Shown here piece after piece: positions 22,965 through 51,550 of a stretch of DNA of 64,000 bases. A program made the translations under genes and the position numbers. The DNA lies in NCBI RefSeq assembly GCF_900109735.1, contig NZ_FOAS01000013.1, forward strand, positions 1 through 64,000, given 5' to 3'. How positions within the stretch are numbered: the stretch's first letter is position 1; each line of letters starts with the position of its first letter. This stretch comes from Atopomonas hussainii. Its GTDB lineage: Bacteria > Pseudomonadota > Gammaproteobacteria > Pseudomonadales > Pseudomonadaceae. The notes beneath the pieces were generated by a model. The model saw only the letters and a program-made list of their open reading frames with translations. It searched no databases and was not told where the DNA came from.

Positions 22965-23011
22965 TCAGTAAGCAGGAAACAGGCAAAACGCCGGCACGGC
23001 AGGCGGTGCTT

Positions 23012-23094
23012 GTTTCCTCCGCGGGGATTAACCCGATCAGGTTCAACGGGCTCCGGTATGCACCGATCTCAGCCTACAACTAGGCACCCCGACA
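23012..23094 (-). promoter_or_regulatory. TPP riboswitch (THI element) of thiC
   Basis: On the minus strand the leader shows the conserved blocks GGGGTGCC, GGCTGAGAT, ATACCG, TTGAACCTGATC and GGGTTAAT in the right order and spacing. It ends about 70 bases before the thiC ATG. Thiamine pyrophosphate binding is expected to lower thiC expression. As the sequence near the ATG lacks an obvious T-run, control may be at translation start. Confidence 0.95.
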
Positions 23095-23181
23095 AGACGC
23101 GCTCAGTCTAACCAAGGCGCAACAACCTAGCCAGTTTGAAGACGTTAAAGACACAGCCAGTCACGCTTTCAGCACCGCGCA

Positions 23182-44254: not shown

Positions 44255-44331
44255 GGGCCTATAGCTCAGTTGGTTAGAGCAGAGGACTCATAATCCTTTG
44301 GTCCACGGTTCGAGTCCGTGTGGGCCCACCA
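44255..44331 (+). tRNA. tRNA with CAU anticodon, probably tRNA-Ile2
   Basis: Complete cloverleaf of 77 bases with encoded CCA: acceptor GGGCCTA/TGGGCCC (one G-T pair), D-arm GCTC/GAGC, anticodon stem AGGA/TCCT around CTCATAA, T-arm CACGG/CCGTG. The anticodon is CAT at 44289-44291. The GACTCATAATC anticodon arm and TTGGTC variable region resemble the AUA-reading tRNA-Ile2, whose C34 becomes lysidine, more than elongator tRNA-Met. A TilS-target check would settle it. Accessory genes begin directly downstream, so it may mark an integration hot spot. Confidence 0.9.
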
Positions 44332-44487: not shown

Positions 44488-45015
44488 ATGGGCAAGCCCG
44501 CCTCACGTCTTAGCGATTTAAATGCATGCCCCATCCCTGGGCACGGCACTAATCCCACCACCACCGGCTCGCCGGATGTTTTGATCAACAACCTGCCAAC
44601 ACTGCGGGTCGGCGACAGCAGTGCCTGTGGTGATACGGTTGCGCAGGGGATCAGCAACATCTTGGTTAACGGCAAACCCATTGCCTTTCTCGGCAGCGCT
44701 ACCGCGCATGGCGGCATGATAGTTACCGGCTCTGGTAATGTGCTGGTTGGCACTCAAGTGGGCAGCGCGCCCTTTGTAGCGCCGGAGTTTATTCCCCAAC
44801 ACAGCGAGCAATATCAGCTGATTGACAGCAACAGCGGCGAGCCCATTGCTGATGCGCTCTACTGTGTGGAGTGCGCCGACGGCCAGCGTTTTGTGGGCTA
44901 CACCAACGCGCACGGCAATACCGAGCGAGTCTTTACCCAAGACGCCCAATCCGTGGTCGTGCGTTGGGGGCGAGATGCAGCAAACTACCTCAAGCAACGA
45001 GGCATCAGCTTCTAA
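44488..45015 (+). CDS. PAAR-domain spike protein with transthyretin-like tail
   Basis: 175 residues. The N-terminal PAAR domain (1-95) has CPIPGHGT, SPDVLINNLPTLRVGD and HGGMIVTGSGNVLVG, which form the cone that tips the VgrG needle of a type VI secretion system. The C-terminal part (about 105-165) reads like a transthyretin/carboxypeptidase-regulatory beta-sandwich (LIDSNSGEPIADALY then GYTNAHGNT), a known tail on PAAR proteins for docking cargo. The ATG at 44488 has AAGGA 8 bases before it; upstream ATGs lack one. No VgrG or secretion apparatus gene lies in the window, so this is an orphan cassette. Confidence 0.85.
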   Translation: MGKPASRLSDLNACPIPGHGTNPTTTGSPDVLINNLPTLRVGDSSACGDTVAQGISNILVNGKPIAFLGSATAHGGMIVTGSGNVLVGTQVGSAPFVAPEFIPQHSEQYQLIDSNSGEPIADALYCVECADGQRFVGYTNAHGNTERVFTQDAQSVVVRWGRDAANYLKQRGISF

Positions 45016-47296: not shown

Positions 47297-47440
47297 CCAT
47301 AGCGCGTCGCCCTAGGCATGCCAAAAGGCACGGCAAAAGCGCCCAAAAGGCCCGTGCTAGAGCCAGATAACCGAGAAACCCTTCGCAAAACTGCGCAACT
47401 TTTCGCTACTATCCAAGCATCTCTGGATAGAGGCCAAGAA

Positions 47441-48211
47441 ATGGATTTCTCCCCCATCATCGCGCCGTTGTGGACTACCGTGAGCTGGCTGATCCCGCTG
47501 ATGCTGGTCATCGGCCTGCTGCAAACCCCGTGGGCCAAGGGTTATATCGGTGAGCTTGTGGTGCGGCTGATTGCCCGCATTAAGCTCGACCAACACACCT
47601 ACCGCCGCCTGCACAACGTCACCCTCAACACGCCAGACGGCACCACGCAGATCGACCACGTCTTTCTCTCGCCCTACGGCATCTTTGTGCTGGAAACCAA
47701 GAACATGCGCGGCTGGATCTTCGGCAGCGAGAAGCAAGCACAGTGGACGCAGAAGCTCTACCAGCGCAGCTTCAAATTCCAAAACCCGCTGCGACAGAAC
47801 TACAAACACCTCAAAGCCCTGGAAGCCACCCTTGGCGTAAACCCCGAGCACCTGCACTCGCTGATCAGCTTTGTTGGCGGCAGCACCTTTAAAACCGCCA
47901 TGCCCGCCAACGTGACCCAAGGCATTGGCTTTATTCGCTATATCCAGTCATTCCAGCAGCTGGTGTTTAGCGCCACAGAAGTGGACGCCCTGCTGCACAC
48001 CCTACAAACCGGCCGCCGCGCGCCGACCCTCGCCACCCACCGCGAGCATGTGCAAAACCTTAAGCGCCGGAGTGATCCGACAGCCGAACGGCTGTGCCCG
48101 AAATGCGGCAGCGCGCTGCTGATACGCACGGTTAAATCGGGGGCTAAGGCGGGGCAGCAGTTTTGGGGATGTTCGGGGTTCCCGAAGTGCAGAACGATGC
48201 AAAGTTTTTGA
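47441..48211 (+). CDS. NERD-domain protein with topoisomerase-type zinc ribbon
   Basis: 256 residues. An N-terminal membrane helix (about 8-25) leads to a NERD nuclease-related domain (about 35-155) with IDHVF (Asp72) and LETKN (Glu85, Lys87), the expected nuclease triad. A C-terminal C4 zinc ribbon (CPKCGS then CSGFPKC) of the topoisomerase I type probably binds nucleic acid. A longer frame starts at 47318, but the ATG at 47441 has GAGG upstream and begins the conserved part. Such proteins occur in variable regions; function unknown. It is the last GC-rich gene before the A+T-rich operon. Confidence 0.75.
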   Translation: MDFSPIIAPLWTTVSWLIPLMLVIGLLQTPWAKGYIGELVVRLIARIKLDQHTYRRLHNVTLNTPDGTTQIDHVFLSPYGIFVLETKNMRGWIFGSEKQAQWTQKLYQRSFKFQNPLRQNYKHLKALEATLGVNPEHLHSLISFVGGSTFKTAMPANVTQGIGFIRYIQSFQQLVFSATEVDALLHTLQTGRRAPTLATHREHVQNLKRRSDPTAERLCPKCGSALLIRTVKSGAKAGQQFWGCSGFPKCRTMQSF

Positions 48212-48397
48212 GAGATCGGGGCAGGACAAGATCGTGACGCATGCGCACACAAATAAATTCGCCCCTAGCTCTGCAAAGATCCGACCTATTCAGAGCTTAT
48301 AGGTACACGAGGCAAAAAACGTGACAGCCATGTTCCAGGATCTATTAGCTCTGATAACGAAAACACCCATCCACTCTAAAAATCAAAGGCTTATACA

Positions 48398-49414
48398 ATG
48401 ATAGATGTAAGCTCAGCACAGCTAACAAATATTGCCGTGCATCGCGTTGGAAATAAGACTCGAGAAGAAGGCATACGTCTTGCCGATAATGAGTCACAGA
48501 TCAGCGATTCACTACGGGACTCCCTCGCTCAGCATTACTTGCGCCCACTCGCGAAACAGGGAAATAACTATGAGTTCTTCCACGAGACCGACTTATCCCT
48601 AAACGTCACTTACAATCTCGCAAAAAGAATATTCGACGAAAAGAAAAGCTTCGTTAAGAACACCCAAGGAATTGCAAAGCATCTATATTCAACCTCAACC
48701 CATCCAAACATAGCCAGCGGTGAGCTAGTTTTTTTACTATTTACAGAAGTTCTCATTGGACAGGAGAGCCTGGACGCACTTGCAGTATTAAAAATAGAAA
48801 GCAAGGACGACTTTATTAACATCAAGGAATCATCCAACTCTTTTGAAATCATCGAACTATCAGGAATCTCATTAAGCCGAATACAAAAAGGCGCCTTAAT
48901 ACTCCAAAACTCAAAAGGAGTTTGCGTTATCGACAACTTAGGAAAAAAAACAAAGTACTGGACTGAGTCATTTTTAAAAGTTTCACCTAGCGCAACCTCA
49001 AAATCCTATGCCAAGATCAGCGGATCAATATTAAAAGGGGTAACCTCCAAGATCGAGGACGCCCAGGCAACAATTGACTTTTCCGAAAGAATAACAGAGA
49101 AAATAAACTCATCAGAAACCACAACAATTGAAGAAATAAAAAACATATCATCTCAATTCATCGATCACGACTCTCTGACCGAAATCATATCCGGCATAGC
49201 CACTAGCTCCGGGCACGAAATCTCCGAAAACTATGAATTTAAATCAAAAGATTTTTCAAAGATCGCCAACCCAAAAAATAGAAAGATAAAAATACACAGC
49301 GGCGTTGGGCTAATCGTTAGCAACCCTAGCTACACTATCTCCAAGCTACTTGTCATAGACAAAGGACATGGCTTTCAAACAATTATCGACATCAAAGAAA
49401 GGAAGGAACAGTAA
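48398..49414 (+). CDS. 37-kDa nucleoid-associated protein (NA37/YejK) family
   Basis: 338 residues, A+T-rich coding. The start NIAVHRVGNKTREEGI, the block HLYSTSTHPNIASGELVFLLF and the stretch LQNSKGVCVIDNLGKKTKYWTESFL fit the NA37 (NdpA/YejK) family, as does the beta-rich end. E. coli YejK is a DNA-associated protein of obscure function. It overlaps the next gene by one base. The 186 bases upstream are A+T-rich and hold the operon's promoter. Association with the nuclease-like gene suggests a DNA-sensing or DNA-guarding subunit, which is inference. Confidence 0.65.
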   Translation: MIDVSSAQLTNIAVHRVGNKTREEGIRLADNESQISDSLRDSLAQHYLRPLAKQGNNYEFFHETDLSLNVTYNLAKRIFDEKKSFVKNTQGIAKHLYSTSTHPNIASGELVFLLFTEVLIGQESLDALAVLKIESKDDFINIKESSNSFEIIELSGISLSRIQKGALILQNSKGVCVIDNLGKKTKYWTESFLKVSPSATSKSYAKISGSILKGVTSKIEDAQATIDFSERITEKINSSETTTIEEIKNISSQFIDHDSLTEIISGIATSSGHEISENYEFKSKDFSKIANPKNRKIKIHSGVGLIVSNPSYTISKLLVIDKGHGFQTIIDIKERKEQ

Positions 49415-50352
49415 TGGGGGAGAAATCTAAAAAGTCTGGAGAAATCGGGGAAAAAATATCTTCCGAACTACTTCGATTAATTGGCTGGAAAAACGCACTA
49501 CACAACATGAGCATCACCTGCAACTCTCCCAAGCATAGAAACGAATCAGGCAACCAGCGAGAAACGCATGGCGAGGATCAGCTTTTTATTTATCACAACC
49601 CCTTTCATGATGATAGAACGGAAATAGTTCATGTTTCTGTAAAGAACTCCCTAGGCGCACCTCCAGGCGAAGCAACACTGAGGACAAAATTTAAGTCCCA
49701 CTTTAAAGAGTGCCAAGAAATAATTGAATGCGCCAAGCACAGCCCTGAAGTCAACTCAATATCTAGAGCCCACACCACTAGAGGAAAAAAAAGTCACTCC
49801 GGCCTTTTAATATGGTTACACAATGATGAATCCGACATTGAGTGCGACATCAAACCTCACCTAGCTAGTAGCCGCTTAGAATCCGACGCAAAATTCCCAA
49901 TATACTTGATAGACAATGCACGAGCATCATTCTTAATAAAAATAATTGACGATATAAAAAGAAAGTCCGAGGATAAAAAAATAGAATTTTTTTATCCTCG
50001 GATAGGAACATCTGTCTATGTAAACGAAGCCAGATCCGGCAGCAGTTTGCCGCTAGAGCTTATCGCATCAGATGTAGTCCCATTCCTTGTTAAATCAGAC
50101 GACTCATGTGAAATGGTGATTTACGCAGATCAAAAATTCAGCGTCGACGCATATAAAAAGCTTTTATCTTATGCATTACAATTCTCTAGCGGCCTTGTTG
50201 CAAAAATCAAAATAGGCATGCCCGACTACAATCCATCACAAGATGAACATGAAGCACAACTCGCCAGGTTTCACTTCCCGGACCGGAACGAAGAAATAAT
50301 TCCATTTTCTTTCAACAGGTCGATTTTAAGTCTCATTCCAAAAGAGGATTAA
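49414..50352 (+). CDS. GAPS4a-like PD-(D/E)XK-type nuclease
   Basis: 312 residues. The start KKSGEIGEKISSELLRLIGWKN is a typical helix ahead of a restriction-endonuclease fold. THGEDQLF (Asp55) and VSVKNS (Ser75-Val-Lys77) follow on two strands, as in the PD-(D/E)XK layout. The acidic residue of the last half-motif is Ser here, so metal binding may use another residue. The overall pattern matches my recollection of GAPS4a, part of a two-gene anti-phage system first reported from Vibrio mobile elements. GGAAGGA precedes the ATG, which overlaps the NA37 stop. Family assignment needs an HMM search. Confidence 0.55.
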   Translation: MGEKSKKSGEIGEKISSELLRLIGWKNALHNMSITCNSPKHRNESGNQRETHGEDQLFIYHNPFHDDRTEIVHVSVKNSLGAPPGEATLRTKFKSHFKECQEIIECAKHSPEVNSISRAHTTRGKKSHSGLLIWLHNDESDIECDIKPHLASSRLESDAKFPIYLIDNARASFLIKIIDDIKRKSEDKKIEFFYPRIGTSVYVNEARSGSSLPLELIASDVVPFLVKSDDSCEMVIYADQKFSVDAYKKLLSYALQFSSGLVAKIKIGMPDYNPSQDEHEAQLARFHFPDRNEEIIPFSFNRSILSLIPKED

Positions 50353-50354
50353 AC

Positions 50355-51488
50355 ATGAAATCCCCACTTGACACCAACTCAACCATTCTCGCAGGCGCAG
50401 ATCTGAGAATCCTTCTTAACAGCGAGCACATTTCTTACGGAGAAATAAATTCAACCCTAAAAGAAAAAGGAATTTATATTGGAGAAAATGAAAAATCCAT
50501 CACCGTCCCCATACTGTCTGCAACCCTCTTGACCCCCGACAACTTCTCTCGGCTAATAGAGGCAAGTGTTGACCGCGAGTCACAACCAAAGGTAAAAGGC
50601 TCCAGTCTTAAACTAGTCTCGGAATCCACGGACTGGATAACCCCTCTAAAAGACAACTTATTCGAAAACTCAAGCTGGCTAACAAGTGAGTCAAGCAACA
50701 TCTCTTTCACGGAGGAGCCCGAAGTAATAATTGACGACTCAAACACAATAAGAATCCCCTATAAAGTAACCAAATCTGATTACAGCAAAGACTGGCTACA
50801 ACGAGAACTTCAGTTCGATGCCGAGATAACAATAAGAAAACAAAACGGCACCTTACTACTAGACTTCTCATCAAGCCATTCATCAAAAGAAACAGAAGTG
50901 ATCAACAAAAAAATAACAAGCAATATCTCGAAAATACTTAACAAGGCAAACATAGTCACCTCATCTGAGGTTGAGCAGATCAGATTCGACTCCTTTAACA
51001 ATGAAGAAAGAATACGCTTCTTCAAAAAACTCACAGCCGGTCTTGGCAAGGAGATATCTACCGGAGACGTTGATAACATCGAGATCAACATTGATCGCGA
51101 TGGCCCACCTCTACCGAGTGACCCGCAAATCTCATGGATGAAAAACTCCGTCAAGAGAATGAAAATTGATGGGGAAAGATTGAATGACGTTTTCCTAATC
51201 TCTGATGAAAAGTACTACCAGTATTATCACATCCAAAAAATGGATGTCGAATATACTTACTCTCAAGGGGTTAACACTGGGAAGTGCAAAATCTGCTTCC
51301 TATTCAGCAGCACTAATCGCTCTGAAGATGATTACAAAAAATCCGAACTGACATTTTCCTGCGTAAGATTAAGCCATGACAACAAAGTCAACACCAATTC
51401 AAAGCGATCAATATCAAAATTCATAAATGAAAGCCTAAAAAAACTGATAGATGCGAAATTTAATGAGTGTATTGGTACAACCCTGTAG
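50355..51488 (+). CDS. GAPS4b-like protein
   Basis: 377 residues, hydrophilic, no membrane segments. The N-terminus (DLRILLNSEHISYGEINSTL, KGIYIGENEKSITVPIL, ATLLTPDNFSRL) resembles a small winged-helix-like domain and matches what I remember of GAPS4b, the partner of the GAPS4a nuclease. The remainder is beta-rich and unassigned. It starts 2 bases after the previous stop, so the two products are made together. The known pair causes death or growth arrest of infected cells; which subunit senses the phage is not readable from sequence. Confidence 0.5.
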   Translation: MKSPLDTNSTILAGADLRILLNSEHISYGEINSTLKEKGIYIGENEKSITVPILSATLLTPDNFSRLIEASVDRESQPKVKGSSLKLVSESTDWITPLKDNLFENSSWLTSESSNISFTEEPEVIIDDSNTIRIPYKVTKSDYSKDWLQRELQFDAEITIRKQNGTLLLDFSSSHSSKETEVINKKITSNISKILNKANIVTSSEVEQIRFDSFNNEERIRFFKKLTAGLGKEISTGDVDNIEINIDRDGPPLPSDPQISWMKNSVKRMKIDGERLNDVFLISDEKYYQYYHIQKMDVEYTYSQGVNTGKCKICFLFSSTNRSEDDYKKSELTFSCVRLSHDNKVNTNSKRSISKFINESLKKLIDAKFNECIGTTL

Positions 51489-51497
51489 GTTCCGTCT

Positions 51498-51531
51498 TGA
51501 GCCTCACCTCGCAAGCGCGAGATTTGGCTCA
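51498..51531 (+). terminator. Nested hairpin closing the A+T-rich operon
   Basis: Outer stem GAGCC/GGCTC and inner stem CTCGC/GCGAG with a 4-base loop. No T-run follows, so termination, if any, would be weak or factor-dependent. It also lies between convergent genes and near the boundary of the accessory region. Confidence 0.4.
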
Positions 51532-51550
51532 TACGGCTTGCCCAAGCCCA

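What the first reader, a model, noticed from the sequence alone, without database searches (positions are those of the whole stretch)
48398..51488. Candidate three-gene anti-phage operon: NA37-family protein + GAPS4a-like nuclease + GAPS4b-like protein
Three genes with 1-base overlap and 2-base gap form one compact, A+T-rich unit amid GC-rich chromosome. Genes 2 and 3 resemble, from memory, the GAPS4a/GAPS4b pair; gene 1 resembles the NA37/YejK nucleoid-associated family. I know of no description of GAPS4 with an NA37 partner. A DNA-associated protein could help distinguish host from phage DNA, restrain the nuclease, or extend its target range.
Basis: partly seen in the sequence, partly recalled or inferred. 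Interest (0 to 1): 0.82.

Follow-up and report, generated by a model that had tools for sequence, protein, structure and literature searches.

The report
Three-gene GAPS4 operon with NA37
A bacterial gene pair of a known anti-virus defence type has, in one branch of its family tree, a steady third partner that resembles a chromosome-organising protein; what the partner does is untested, but it is inherited together with the pair.

Summary
Genes 2 and 3 pass NCBI's curated cut-offs for GapS4a (338.7 bits, cut-off 270) and GapS4b (384, cut-off 300); gene 1 passes Pfam NA37 (80 bits, cut-off 24.6). The triad is not unique to this genome: in a contig scan seeded with the window's GapS4a first, 19 of 25 loci carry NA37 directly upstream, in Gamma-, Alpha- and Betaproteobacteria and Clostridia. 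Profile sampling shows it is the minority form: 2 of 11 over-cut-off loci (own genome and chosen centres left out) are triads. Fifteen proteobacterial triads and one viral contig form one GapS4a branch (100/100); NA37 and GapS4a distances agree (r 0.94, n 19, 0 of 5000 permutations). This NA37 groups with viral-contig and Bacillota NA37s, not with the host's own copy. Its predicted fold matches E. coli YejK (Z 15.0); GapS4b's best structural match is RdgC (Z 10.4, not in Foldseek's shown list). Best reading: a three-subunit GAPS4 subtype, a nuclease plus two DNA-binding-type proteins. Anti-phage activity and NA37's role are untested. My searches of the held library found no description of it, but that library lacks the original GAPS4 paper.

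The parts
48398..49414 (+). Gene 1: NA37-family protein, 338 aa, YejK-like predicted fold
   Evidence: Pfam PF04245 80 bits vs cut-off 24.6; AlphaFold2 model pLDDT 85.8; E. coli YejK 9be2 is the only Foldseek match with E<=0.001 (3.2e-8, TM 0.43) and the only VIA match with Z>=8 (Z 15.0, rmsd 9.7, 275 aligned)
49414..50352 (+). Gene 2: GapS4a, putative PD-(D/E)XK-type nuclease, 312 aa
   Evidence: NF047933 338.7 bits vs cut-off 270; E13, D55, S75 and K77 invariant in 31 of 31 aligned GapS4a rows. Nuclease reading: recalled literature plus motif, no Pfam nuclease match
49450..49644 (+). Stretch holding the codons of the candidate catalytic set E13...D55...S75-x-K77 of GapS4a
   Evidence: conservation; reading as a PD-(D/E)XK variant is inference
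50355..51488 (+). Gene 3: GapS4b, 377 aa
   Evidence: NF047934 384 bits vs cut-off 300
50586..51476 (+). Part of GapS4b (residues 78-374) whose model resembles RdgC
   Evidence: model pLDDT 81.9; RdgC 2owl Z 10.4, rmsd 4.9, 227 aligned; yeast Iml3 4je3 Z 9.2. Not among the 50 rows shown by Foldseek itself
48212..48397 (+). Intergenic stretch upstream of the operon, probable promoter region
   Evidence: lies between the end of the NERD-domain gene (48211) and gene 1; DNA similarity to Luteibacter anthropi starts at 48369, 29 bases before gene 1; no sigma-70-like site reported there
51481..51542 (+). End of gene 3 and the following GC-rich stretch, possible transcription end (inference)
   Evidence: 62-base 87% match elsewhere in the same genome, G000:C22:233106-233167; not reported as a terminator by the scan

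Best explanation
The three genes are one functional unit: a three-subunit subtype of the GAPS4 anti-phage system that is passed between bacteria as a block. GapS4a is the nuclease effector. GapS4b, with an RdgC/RexA-like fold, holds DNA. The NA37 protein is a dedicated third subunit that binds DNA (or a ligand on it) and sets when or where the nuclease acts, most likely by recognising a structure or topology of replicating foreign DNA; activation leads to DNA cleavage and loss of the phage or the cell. Shown here: membership of the three families, operon linkage, recurrence, co-inheritance, predicted folds. Inferred: a physical complex, DNA binding, nuclease activity of this copy, the anti-phage effect, and the direction of NA37's control.
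For: Curated family cut-offs passed by all three proteins. NA37 directly upstream in 19 of 25 seeded loci; spacing of genes 1-2 is -8 to +18 nt in the 12 triads measured. Fifteen proteobacterial triads plus viral contig L079 are one GapS4a branch, 100/100, with no two-gene locus inside. NA37 and GapS4a distance matrices agree, r 0.94, n 19, 0 of 5000 permutations as high. No constant fourth gene in 17 triads; in 16 two-gene loci no same-strand ORF of 60 aa or more ends within 49 bases upstream. Operon GC is below flank GC in 25 of 25 loci (by 0.007 to 0.295) and in the window, and GapS4a is 85% identical to the copy in Luteibacter (Rhodanobacteraceae), so it moves horizontally. Defence or mobile neighbours: tyrosine integrase upstream in L013, L014, L017; DISARM/Dpd-like helicase and methyltransferase next to L018, with homologues at L021 and L034; type I restriction and PrrC near L016, ZorA near L036. 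YejK fold for NA37; RdgC-like fold for GapS4b. RdgC and lambda RexA share a fold and bind DNA (PMC11077077, abstract and passages). YejK is reported to contact topoisomerase IV and alter DNA relaxation (as told in PMC10561277, passages). An E. coli transcription unit with a YejK domain protects against phage (PMC13092281, section 5).
Against: No experiment on any triad. Two-gene GapS4 loci are commoner in profile sampling (9 of 11), so NA37 is not needed for GAPS4 in general. In the NA37 tree the triad label needs 3 changes, not 1: Clostridia and two viral-contig triad NA37s fall among solo NA37s, so NA37 may have joined GapS4 more than once, or solo copies may have split off. In the GapS4a tree the all-triads-one-side split drops to 46/40 with more rows. 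The nuclease reading of GapS4a has no Pfam support (0 of 24 members with a nuclease match) and the classical D/E before x-K is a serine. RdgC is tied in Z with unrelated 90-residue matches (PMM/PGM, Z 10.3) and is not among Foldseek's 50 shown rows. The NA37-YejK superposition has rmsd 9.7 and TM 0.43. No complex was modelled. The window's own near neighbours show no integrase or clear defence gene among the 5 scanned.
Confidence: 0.55

Rival explanations
1. NA37 is the restraining (antitoxin-like) subunit: it holds the GapS4ab nuclease inactive, and phage interference with NA37 or with DNA topology releases it.
For: First gene of the operon, coupled to the nuclease gene by a TAATG overlap. 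In loci with NA37, GapS4a is broken while NA37 stays open in 3 of 19 (L033 split, L034 interrupted by about 1.6 kb, L036 remnant). Among the triads with open GapS4a examined, one NA37 is frameshifted (viral contig L079), which may be a sequencing error.
Against: Two-gene GapS4 loci lack NA37 and so must be tolerated without it. Counts are small. L079 shows GapS4a open with NA37 frameshifted. A two-gene locus also has a broken GapS4a (L035).
Confidence: 0.2
2. NA37 here is an enzyme or ligand-binding sensor rather than a passive DNA binder: this lineage keeps a set of polar residues that other NA37s lack.
For: H15, N19, E24, H62, N69, H102, E134, K164, D179 and W188 are invariant or nearly so in 22 triad, 23 viral solo and 2 Bacillota NA37 rows. 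In 14 other NA37 rows H15 is kept in 13, but H62 in 3, N69, E134 and D179 in 2, E24 and K164 in 1, and N19, H102 and W188 in none.
Against: The 14 other rows are very distant and may be misaligned; the set is shared with solo NA37s, so it is not specific to GapS4; no coordinates were available to test whether the residues cluster; no active-site match was searched for.
Confidence: 0.15
3. The NA37 gene is a hitch-hiker: an unrelated mobile gene that happens to ride with some GapS4 lineages.
For: NA37 also occurs alone: 24 of 26 NA37 loci in viral contigs show no GapS4a in the stretch held. The triad label needs 3 changes in the NA37 tree.
Against: All 16 rows of the main triad branch of GapS4a have it in the same position, tightly spaced where measured, with matching distances (r 0.94).
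Confidence: 0.1

Closest known systems
GAPS4 (GapS4a/GapS4b; NCBIfam NF047933, NF047934; described, from recall, by Mahata et al. 2024, Nat Microbiol, which is not held in the library)
   Same: Both proteins pass the curated cut-offs and are adjacent in the order a, b
   Different: From recall a two-gene system; here a third gene, NA37, comes first. The window's GapS4a is 31-33% identical to the four Pseudomonas/Halopseudomonas two-gene copies L026-L029
E. coli YejK / NdpA (PF04245; PDB 9be2)
   Same: Pfam family and whole-chain fold match
   Different: Separate lineage: the window genome has another NA37 elsewhere (G000:C24, 325 bits vs 80), and the two fall on opposite sides of a 100/98 branch. 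Four of 19 triad NA37s do not reach PF04245 at all
DefensePredictor transcription unit with a YejK domain (PMC13092281)
   Same: YejK-type domain in a unit that protects E. coli against phage
   Different: I saw only the sentence naming the domain, not the unit's genes, so whether it holds GapS4 is unknown. Three triads used as DNA queries found no copy covering 80% in 5,426 E. coli genomes
RdgC / lambda RexA fold
   Same: GapS4b residues 78-374 match RdgC over 227 residues; RexA is a DNA-binding phage exclusion protein of the same fold (PMC11077077)
   Different: No sequence match to any solved structure; extra N-terminal helical part; the partner is a GapS4a protein, not the RexB of lambda

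Membership tests
GAPS4 | GapS4a profile over curated cut-off | tested here: met
   338.7 bits vs 270
GAPS4 | GapS4b profile over curated cut-off | tested here: met
   384 bits vs 300
GAPS4 | the two genes adjacent, same strand, a then b | tested here: met
GAPS4 | PD-(D/E)XK nuclease domain in GapS4a (recalled from the literature) | tested here: inconclusive
   E13, D55, S75-x-K77 invariant in 31 of 31 rows, but no Pfam nuclease match in 24 members, no match to solved structures by sequence, and no model of GapS4a made
GAPS4 | protection against phage | not testable with these tools
   needs an infection assay
NA37 / YejK (PF04245) | Pfam gathering score | tested here: met
   80 bits vs 24.6 for the window; E<=0.01 in 15 of 19 aligned triad NA37s, not in L013-L016
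NA37 / YejK (PF04245) | YejK fold | tested here: met
   9be2, Foldseek 3.2e-8 with TM 0.43, VIA Z 15.0, rmsd 9.7 over 275
NA37 / YejK (PF04245) | orthology with gammaproteobacterial YejK/NdpA | tested here: not met
   opposite side of a 100/98 branch in a 61-row tree; another NA37 elsewhere in the genome
NA37 / YejK (PF04245) | DNA binding and topoisomerase IV contact | not testable with these tools
   needs biochemistry
RdgC/RexA fold (GapS4b) | two-domain RdgC-like architecture | tested here: inconclusive
   best VIA Z 10.4 over 227 residues, with Iml3 and chain L of the human CCAN also listed; not among Foldseek's 50 shown rows; no protein named RexA among the 50 viral rows shown
toxin-antitoxin pair | nuclease toxic without the partner | not testable with these tools
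   only a pattern of broken genes

The most novel reading that the evidence does not exclude
An undescribed three-subunit GAPS4 subtype in which an NA37 protein of the viral-contig/Bacillota lineage, with a conserved ligand or metal site absent from YejK, senses the topology of replicating foreign DNA and licenses a nuclease carried on an RdgC/RexA-like DNA clamp. Phages that carry the same kind of NA37 may use it to mimic or block that sensor.
Probability: 0.15. Interest if true: 0.8.

Novelty: new variant of a known kind. Interest (0 to 1): 0.58.

Why it matters
The function of NA37/YejK proteins is poorly understood (my own knowledge). A lineage fixed next to a GapS4 pair in compact mobile operons gives a direct assay for what an NA37 protein does: compare a protective triad with and without it. 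The RdgC/RexA-like model of GapS4b suggests how the GAPS4 nuclease reaches DNA and links GAPS4 to lambda Rex exclusion. The solo NA37 genes of viral contigs become candidates for counter-defence or for the trigger.

Tried and rejected
Chance neighbourhood or a one-genome accident: rejected. Relocated host yejK: rejected. A larger constant operon: no constant fourth gene in 17 triads. GapS4a in phages or plasmids: no match in 50,697 phage records; 2 of 72,556 plasmid records, both two-gene. E. coli copies: none covering 80% by DNA with three triad queries (and 74 no match; only a 33-base match in 5 genomes); divergent copies would be missed. Solved relatives by sequence: none convincing for any of the three. 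Promoter and terminator scans gave no more sites than shuffles. A conserved hairpin in GapS4a: seen in the window only, among 13 loci whose homologous stretch was folded. Kiwa KwaB as a relative of NA37 was considered from memory; the 10 papers shown of that search were off topic and no comparison was made. RexA was not named among the 50 viral structure rows shown. The original GAPS4 paper and the YejK paper of Lee and Marians are not held; supplements could not be opened, so the genes of DefensePredictor's YejK unit were not seen. PMC7648647 was searched for the word nucleoid-associated and gave only references; PMC12039261, which mentions GMT islands, was seen in a listing only.

Rows dropped before counts: the GapS4a trees leave out L033-L036 (broken GapS4a) and L082 (copy of L080), and keep L081 as two-gene although its contig starts at GapS4a, so its upstream side cannot be judged. 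The NA37 tree leaves out L033 (extended start), L106 (split), L112 (close kin of L111) and L054-L060 (repeat fetches of triads already in); its label 'hk' for 14 other NA37 rows is mine, and 3 of these (L052, L053, L068) branch at the base of the window's side. The distance test leaves out L079 (frameshifted). L003-L005, L007, L008, L010 and L011 are the same loci as L026, L032, L029, L018, L035, L020 and L035. Places below the GapS4a cut-off (G074 and G095, G521, four, G1348) are not in the tally of 11. With 5 further two-gene loci the all-triads-one-side split keeps one change but its support falls from 91/87 to 46/40. L119-L124 were classified from 1.5-kb flanks.
Full report
WHAT IS THERE. 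The window holds three same-strand ORFs, 48398-49414, 49414-50352 and 50355-51488. Genes 1 and 2 share one base in a TAATG overlap; genes 2 and 3 are two bases apart. The unit has GC 0.404 against 0.605 in 20 kb of flank. Upstream lies a NERD-domain gene with a topoisomerase-type zinc ribbon (47318-48211); downstream, on the other strand, an AraC-type regulator. Three further upstream ORFs gave a CHAP domain, a sub-cut-off DUF4347 and nothing. No integrase or clear defence gene was seen among these five neighbours.

FAMILIES. Gene 1 matches Pfam NA37 (2.7e-22). Genes 2 and 3 have no Pfam match but pass NCBIfam's curated cut-offs for GapS4a (338.7 bits vs 270) and GapS4b (384 vs 300). PADLOC of 2023 gave no match for genes 1 and 2 and one weak one for gene 3 (E 0.00044).

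RECURRENCE. A scan of the collection of 84,980 species genomes with a GapS4a alignment gave 25 loci. NA37 lies directly upstream on the same strand in 19 of 25: 16 have all three genes open, L033 and L034 have a broken GapS4a, L036 keeps only a GapS4a remnant. The other 6, all Pseudomonas or Halopseudomonas, have GapS4a and GapS4b only, one of them (L035) with GapS4a in two pieces. The triads span Gammaproteobacteria, Betaproteobacteria, an alphaproteobacterium (Komagataeibacter) and Clostridia. This scan had the window's protein first and only two peptide seeds, so it favours triads. Profile searches over whole genomes are less biased. Over the GapS4a cut-off were 5 of 144 relatives, 2 of 369 in the class, 1 of 398 in the phylum, 1 of 299 in the phylum of a Clostridia triad, 1 of 13 in the family of G194 and 6 of 295 in the order of Yersinia; the own genome or the chosen centre is counted each time. 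Leaving these out (G000, G509, G513; G194 counted once), 11 distinct loci remain: 2 triads (in G042 and G006) and 9 pairs. G042 holds one of each. In viral contigs, 5 GapS4a loci include one triad, three pairs and one that cannot be judged, and 26 NA37 loci include two triads. Of 72,556 plasmid records 2 carry GapS4a, without NA37; of 50,697 phage records none matched.

HISTORY. In a 31-row GapS4a tree the 20 triads and 11 pairs are separated by one branch (91/87; shuffled labels need 9.4 changes on average). Adding 5 pairs found later keeps one change but lowers support to 46/40, so the place of the Clostridia-type triads is open. The main triad branch, 15 proteobacterial rows with the window plus viral contig L079, stands at 100/100 in both trees. 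NA37 and GapS4a distances over 19 triads agree with r 0.94, and none of 5000 permutations reaches it. The nearest relative found is in Luteibacter anthropi (GapS4a 85%, NA37 70%), and DNA similarity to it covers 48369-51459, the three genes and little more. Operon GC is below flank GC in all 25 scanned loci.

WHICH NA37. The genome has a second NA37 at G000:C24 (325 bits against 80). In a 61-row tree the window's NA37 groups with 16 other proteobacterial triad NA37s and L079 (99/96), inside a wider set of 47 rows (100/97) with viral-contig and Bacillota NA37s, apart from the 14 other rows that I labelled housekeeping. The triad label needs 3 changes on this tree: the Clostridia triads and the viral-contig triads L089 and L095 sit among solo NA37s, in a part with weak support. 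So one joining of NA37 and GapS4 is shown for the main branch only. PF04245 itself reaches 15 of 19 aligned triad NA37s; L013-L016 fall below E 0.01 although they are 39-47% identical to the window's. For the same reason a genome search with PF04245 found nothing in the Komagataeibacter genome and only the other NA37 in Yersinia. In Luteibacter, Acinetobacter sp. NIPH 2100, Xanthomonas sp. XNM01 and a Thiotrichales MAG it found one NA37 each, the triad's. I conclude that the gene came with the operon and was not recruited from the host's own NA37. This lineage, solo members included, keeps many polar residues that the other rows lack.

STRUCTURE. The NA37 model (pLDDT 85.8) matches E. coli YejK (9be2) alone at Foldseek E<=0.001 and VIA Z>=8, but with TM 0.43 and rmsd 9.7, so domain placement differs. 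The GapS4b model (pLDDT 81.9) has as best VIA match E. coli RdgC (2owl, Z 10.4, rmsd 4.9, 227 residues; also 2owy, Z 9.6), with yeast Iml3 (4je3, Z 9.2) and chain L of the human CCAN (7qoo, Z 8.3) also listed. RdgC, RexA and Iml3 are reported to share this fold, and RexA and RdgC bind DNA non-specifically (PMC11077077; abstract and passages read). Caution: small unrelated domains reach Z 10.3 over 90 residues, and the 50 rows that Foldseek shows lack RdgC.

CONTEXT. A tyrosine integrase lies just upstream in L013, L014 and L017. L018 has DISARM/Dpd-like helicase and methyltransferase genes directly upstream and an HNH gene 3.5 kb downstream; L021 and L034 carry homologues of these. Type I restriction and PrrC lie near L016, ZorA near L036. 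I scanned 18 of 135 selected neighbour ORFs against PADLOC, chosen by eye, and 10 of 18 matched at E 1e-5, so this is illustration, not a rate.

HOW IT PROBABLY WORKS. GapS4a carries an invariant E13, D55 and S75-x-K77 (31 of 31 rows), which I read as a PD-(D/E)XK variant. GapS4b would hold DNA, and NA37 would add recognition of DNA form; YejK's reported contact with topoisomerase IV (told in PMC10561277, passages) suggests topology. Whether NA37 activates, aims or restrains the nuclease is open. Three loci have NA37 open and GapS4a broken, one has NA37 frameshifted and GapS4a open; this leans slightly to restraint but is small.

LITERATURE. Searches for GAPS4, GAPS4a/b, Gamma-Mobile-Trio and NA37/YejK/NdpA/PF04245 with defence words listed no paper that describes this triad; long hit lists were seen only in part. 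The library lacks the original GAPS4 paper and preprints, so this is weak evidence of absence. DefensePredictor (PMC13092281; section 5 and passages read) names a YejK domain among those newly validated in defence; the genes of that unit were not seen. NdpA/YejK genes on mobile elements and in Pseudomonas protegens phages are reported (PMC10561277 and PMC10305613, passages). PMC12774648 (passages) mentions only GAPS1.

VERDICT. Real, recurrent and coherent: a new variant (three-gene subtype) of a known defence system, with an untested mechanism. It moved one value: the hitch-hiker rival from 0.08 to 0.10.

Noticed in passing
window 49966-50002: A perfect 17-bp stem with a 3-base loop inside the GapS4a coding region; none of 300 synonymous shuffles of the gene exceeded 13 pairs, and the homologous stretch in Luteibacter and 11 other loci has no such hairpin. 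Origin unexplained.
   Followed up: partly
window 48398-49414 and L084-L109: NA37s of triads, viral contigs and Bacillota share a set of nearly invariant polar residues (H15, N19, E24, H62, N69, H102, E134, K164, D179, W188), most of them absent from 14 other NA37 rows.
   Followed up: partly
L084-L109 (viral contigs): 24 of 26 NA37 loci in viral contigs show no GapS4a in the stretch held; similar genes also sit in Polaribacter and Tenacibaculum phages.
   Followed up: partly
window 51481-51542: A 62-base stretch at the end of gene 3 recurs elsewhere in the genome at G000:C22:233106-233167 with 87% identity.
   Followed up: no
window 47318-48211: NERD-domain gene with zinc ribbon directly upstream; 77-85% DNA matches to most of it in 6 of the 37 genomes searched.
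   Followed up: no
L071:5724-7798: A distant NA37 gene (G324) that overlaps a following 326-aa gene by a few bases; possibly another NA37 operon with an unknown partner.
   Followed up: no
window 44255-44331 (+): tRNA-Met about 4 kb upstream of the operon; a report places an ndpA-bearing mobile element at a tRNA-Met in another genus (PMC10561277, passages). No link shown.
   Followed up: no
window 22997-23101 (-) and 44508-44579 (+): TPP riboswitch and Pseudomonas sRNA P10.
   Followed up: no
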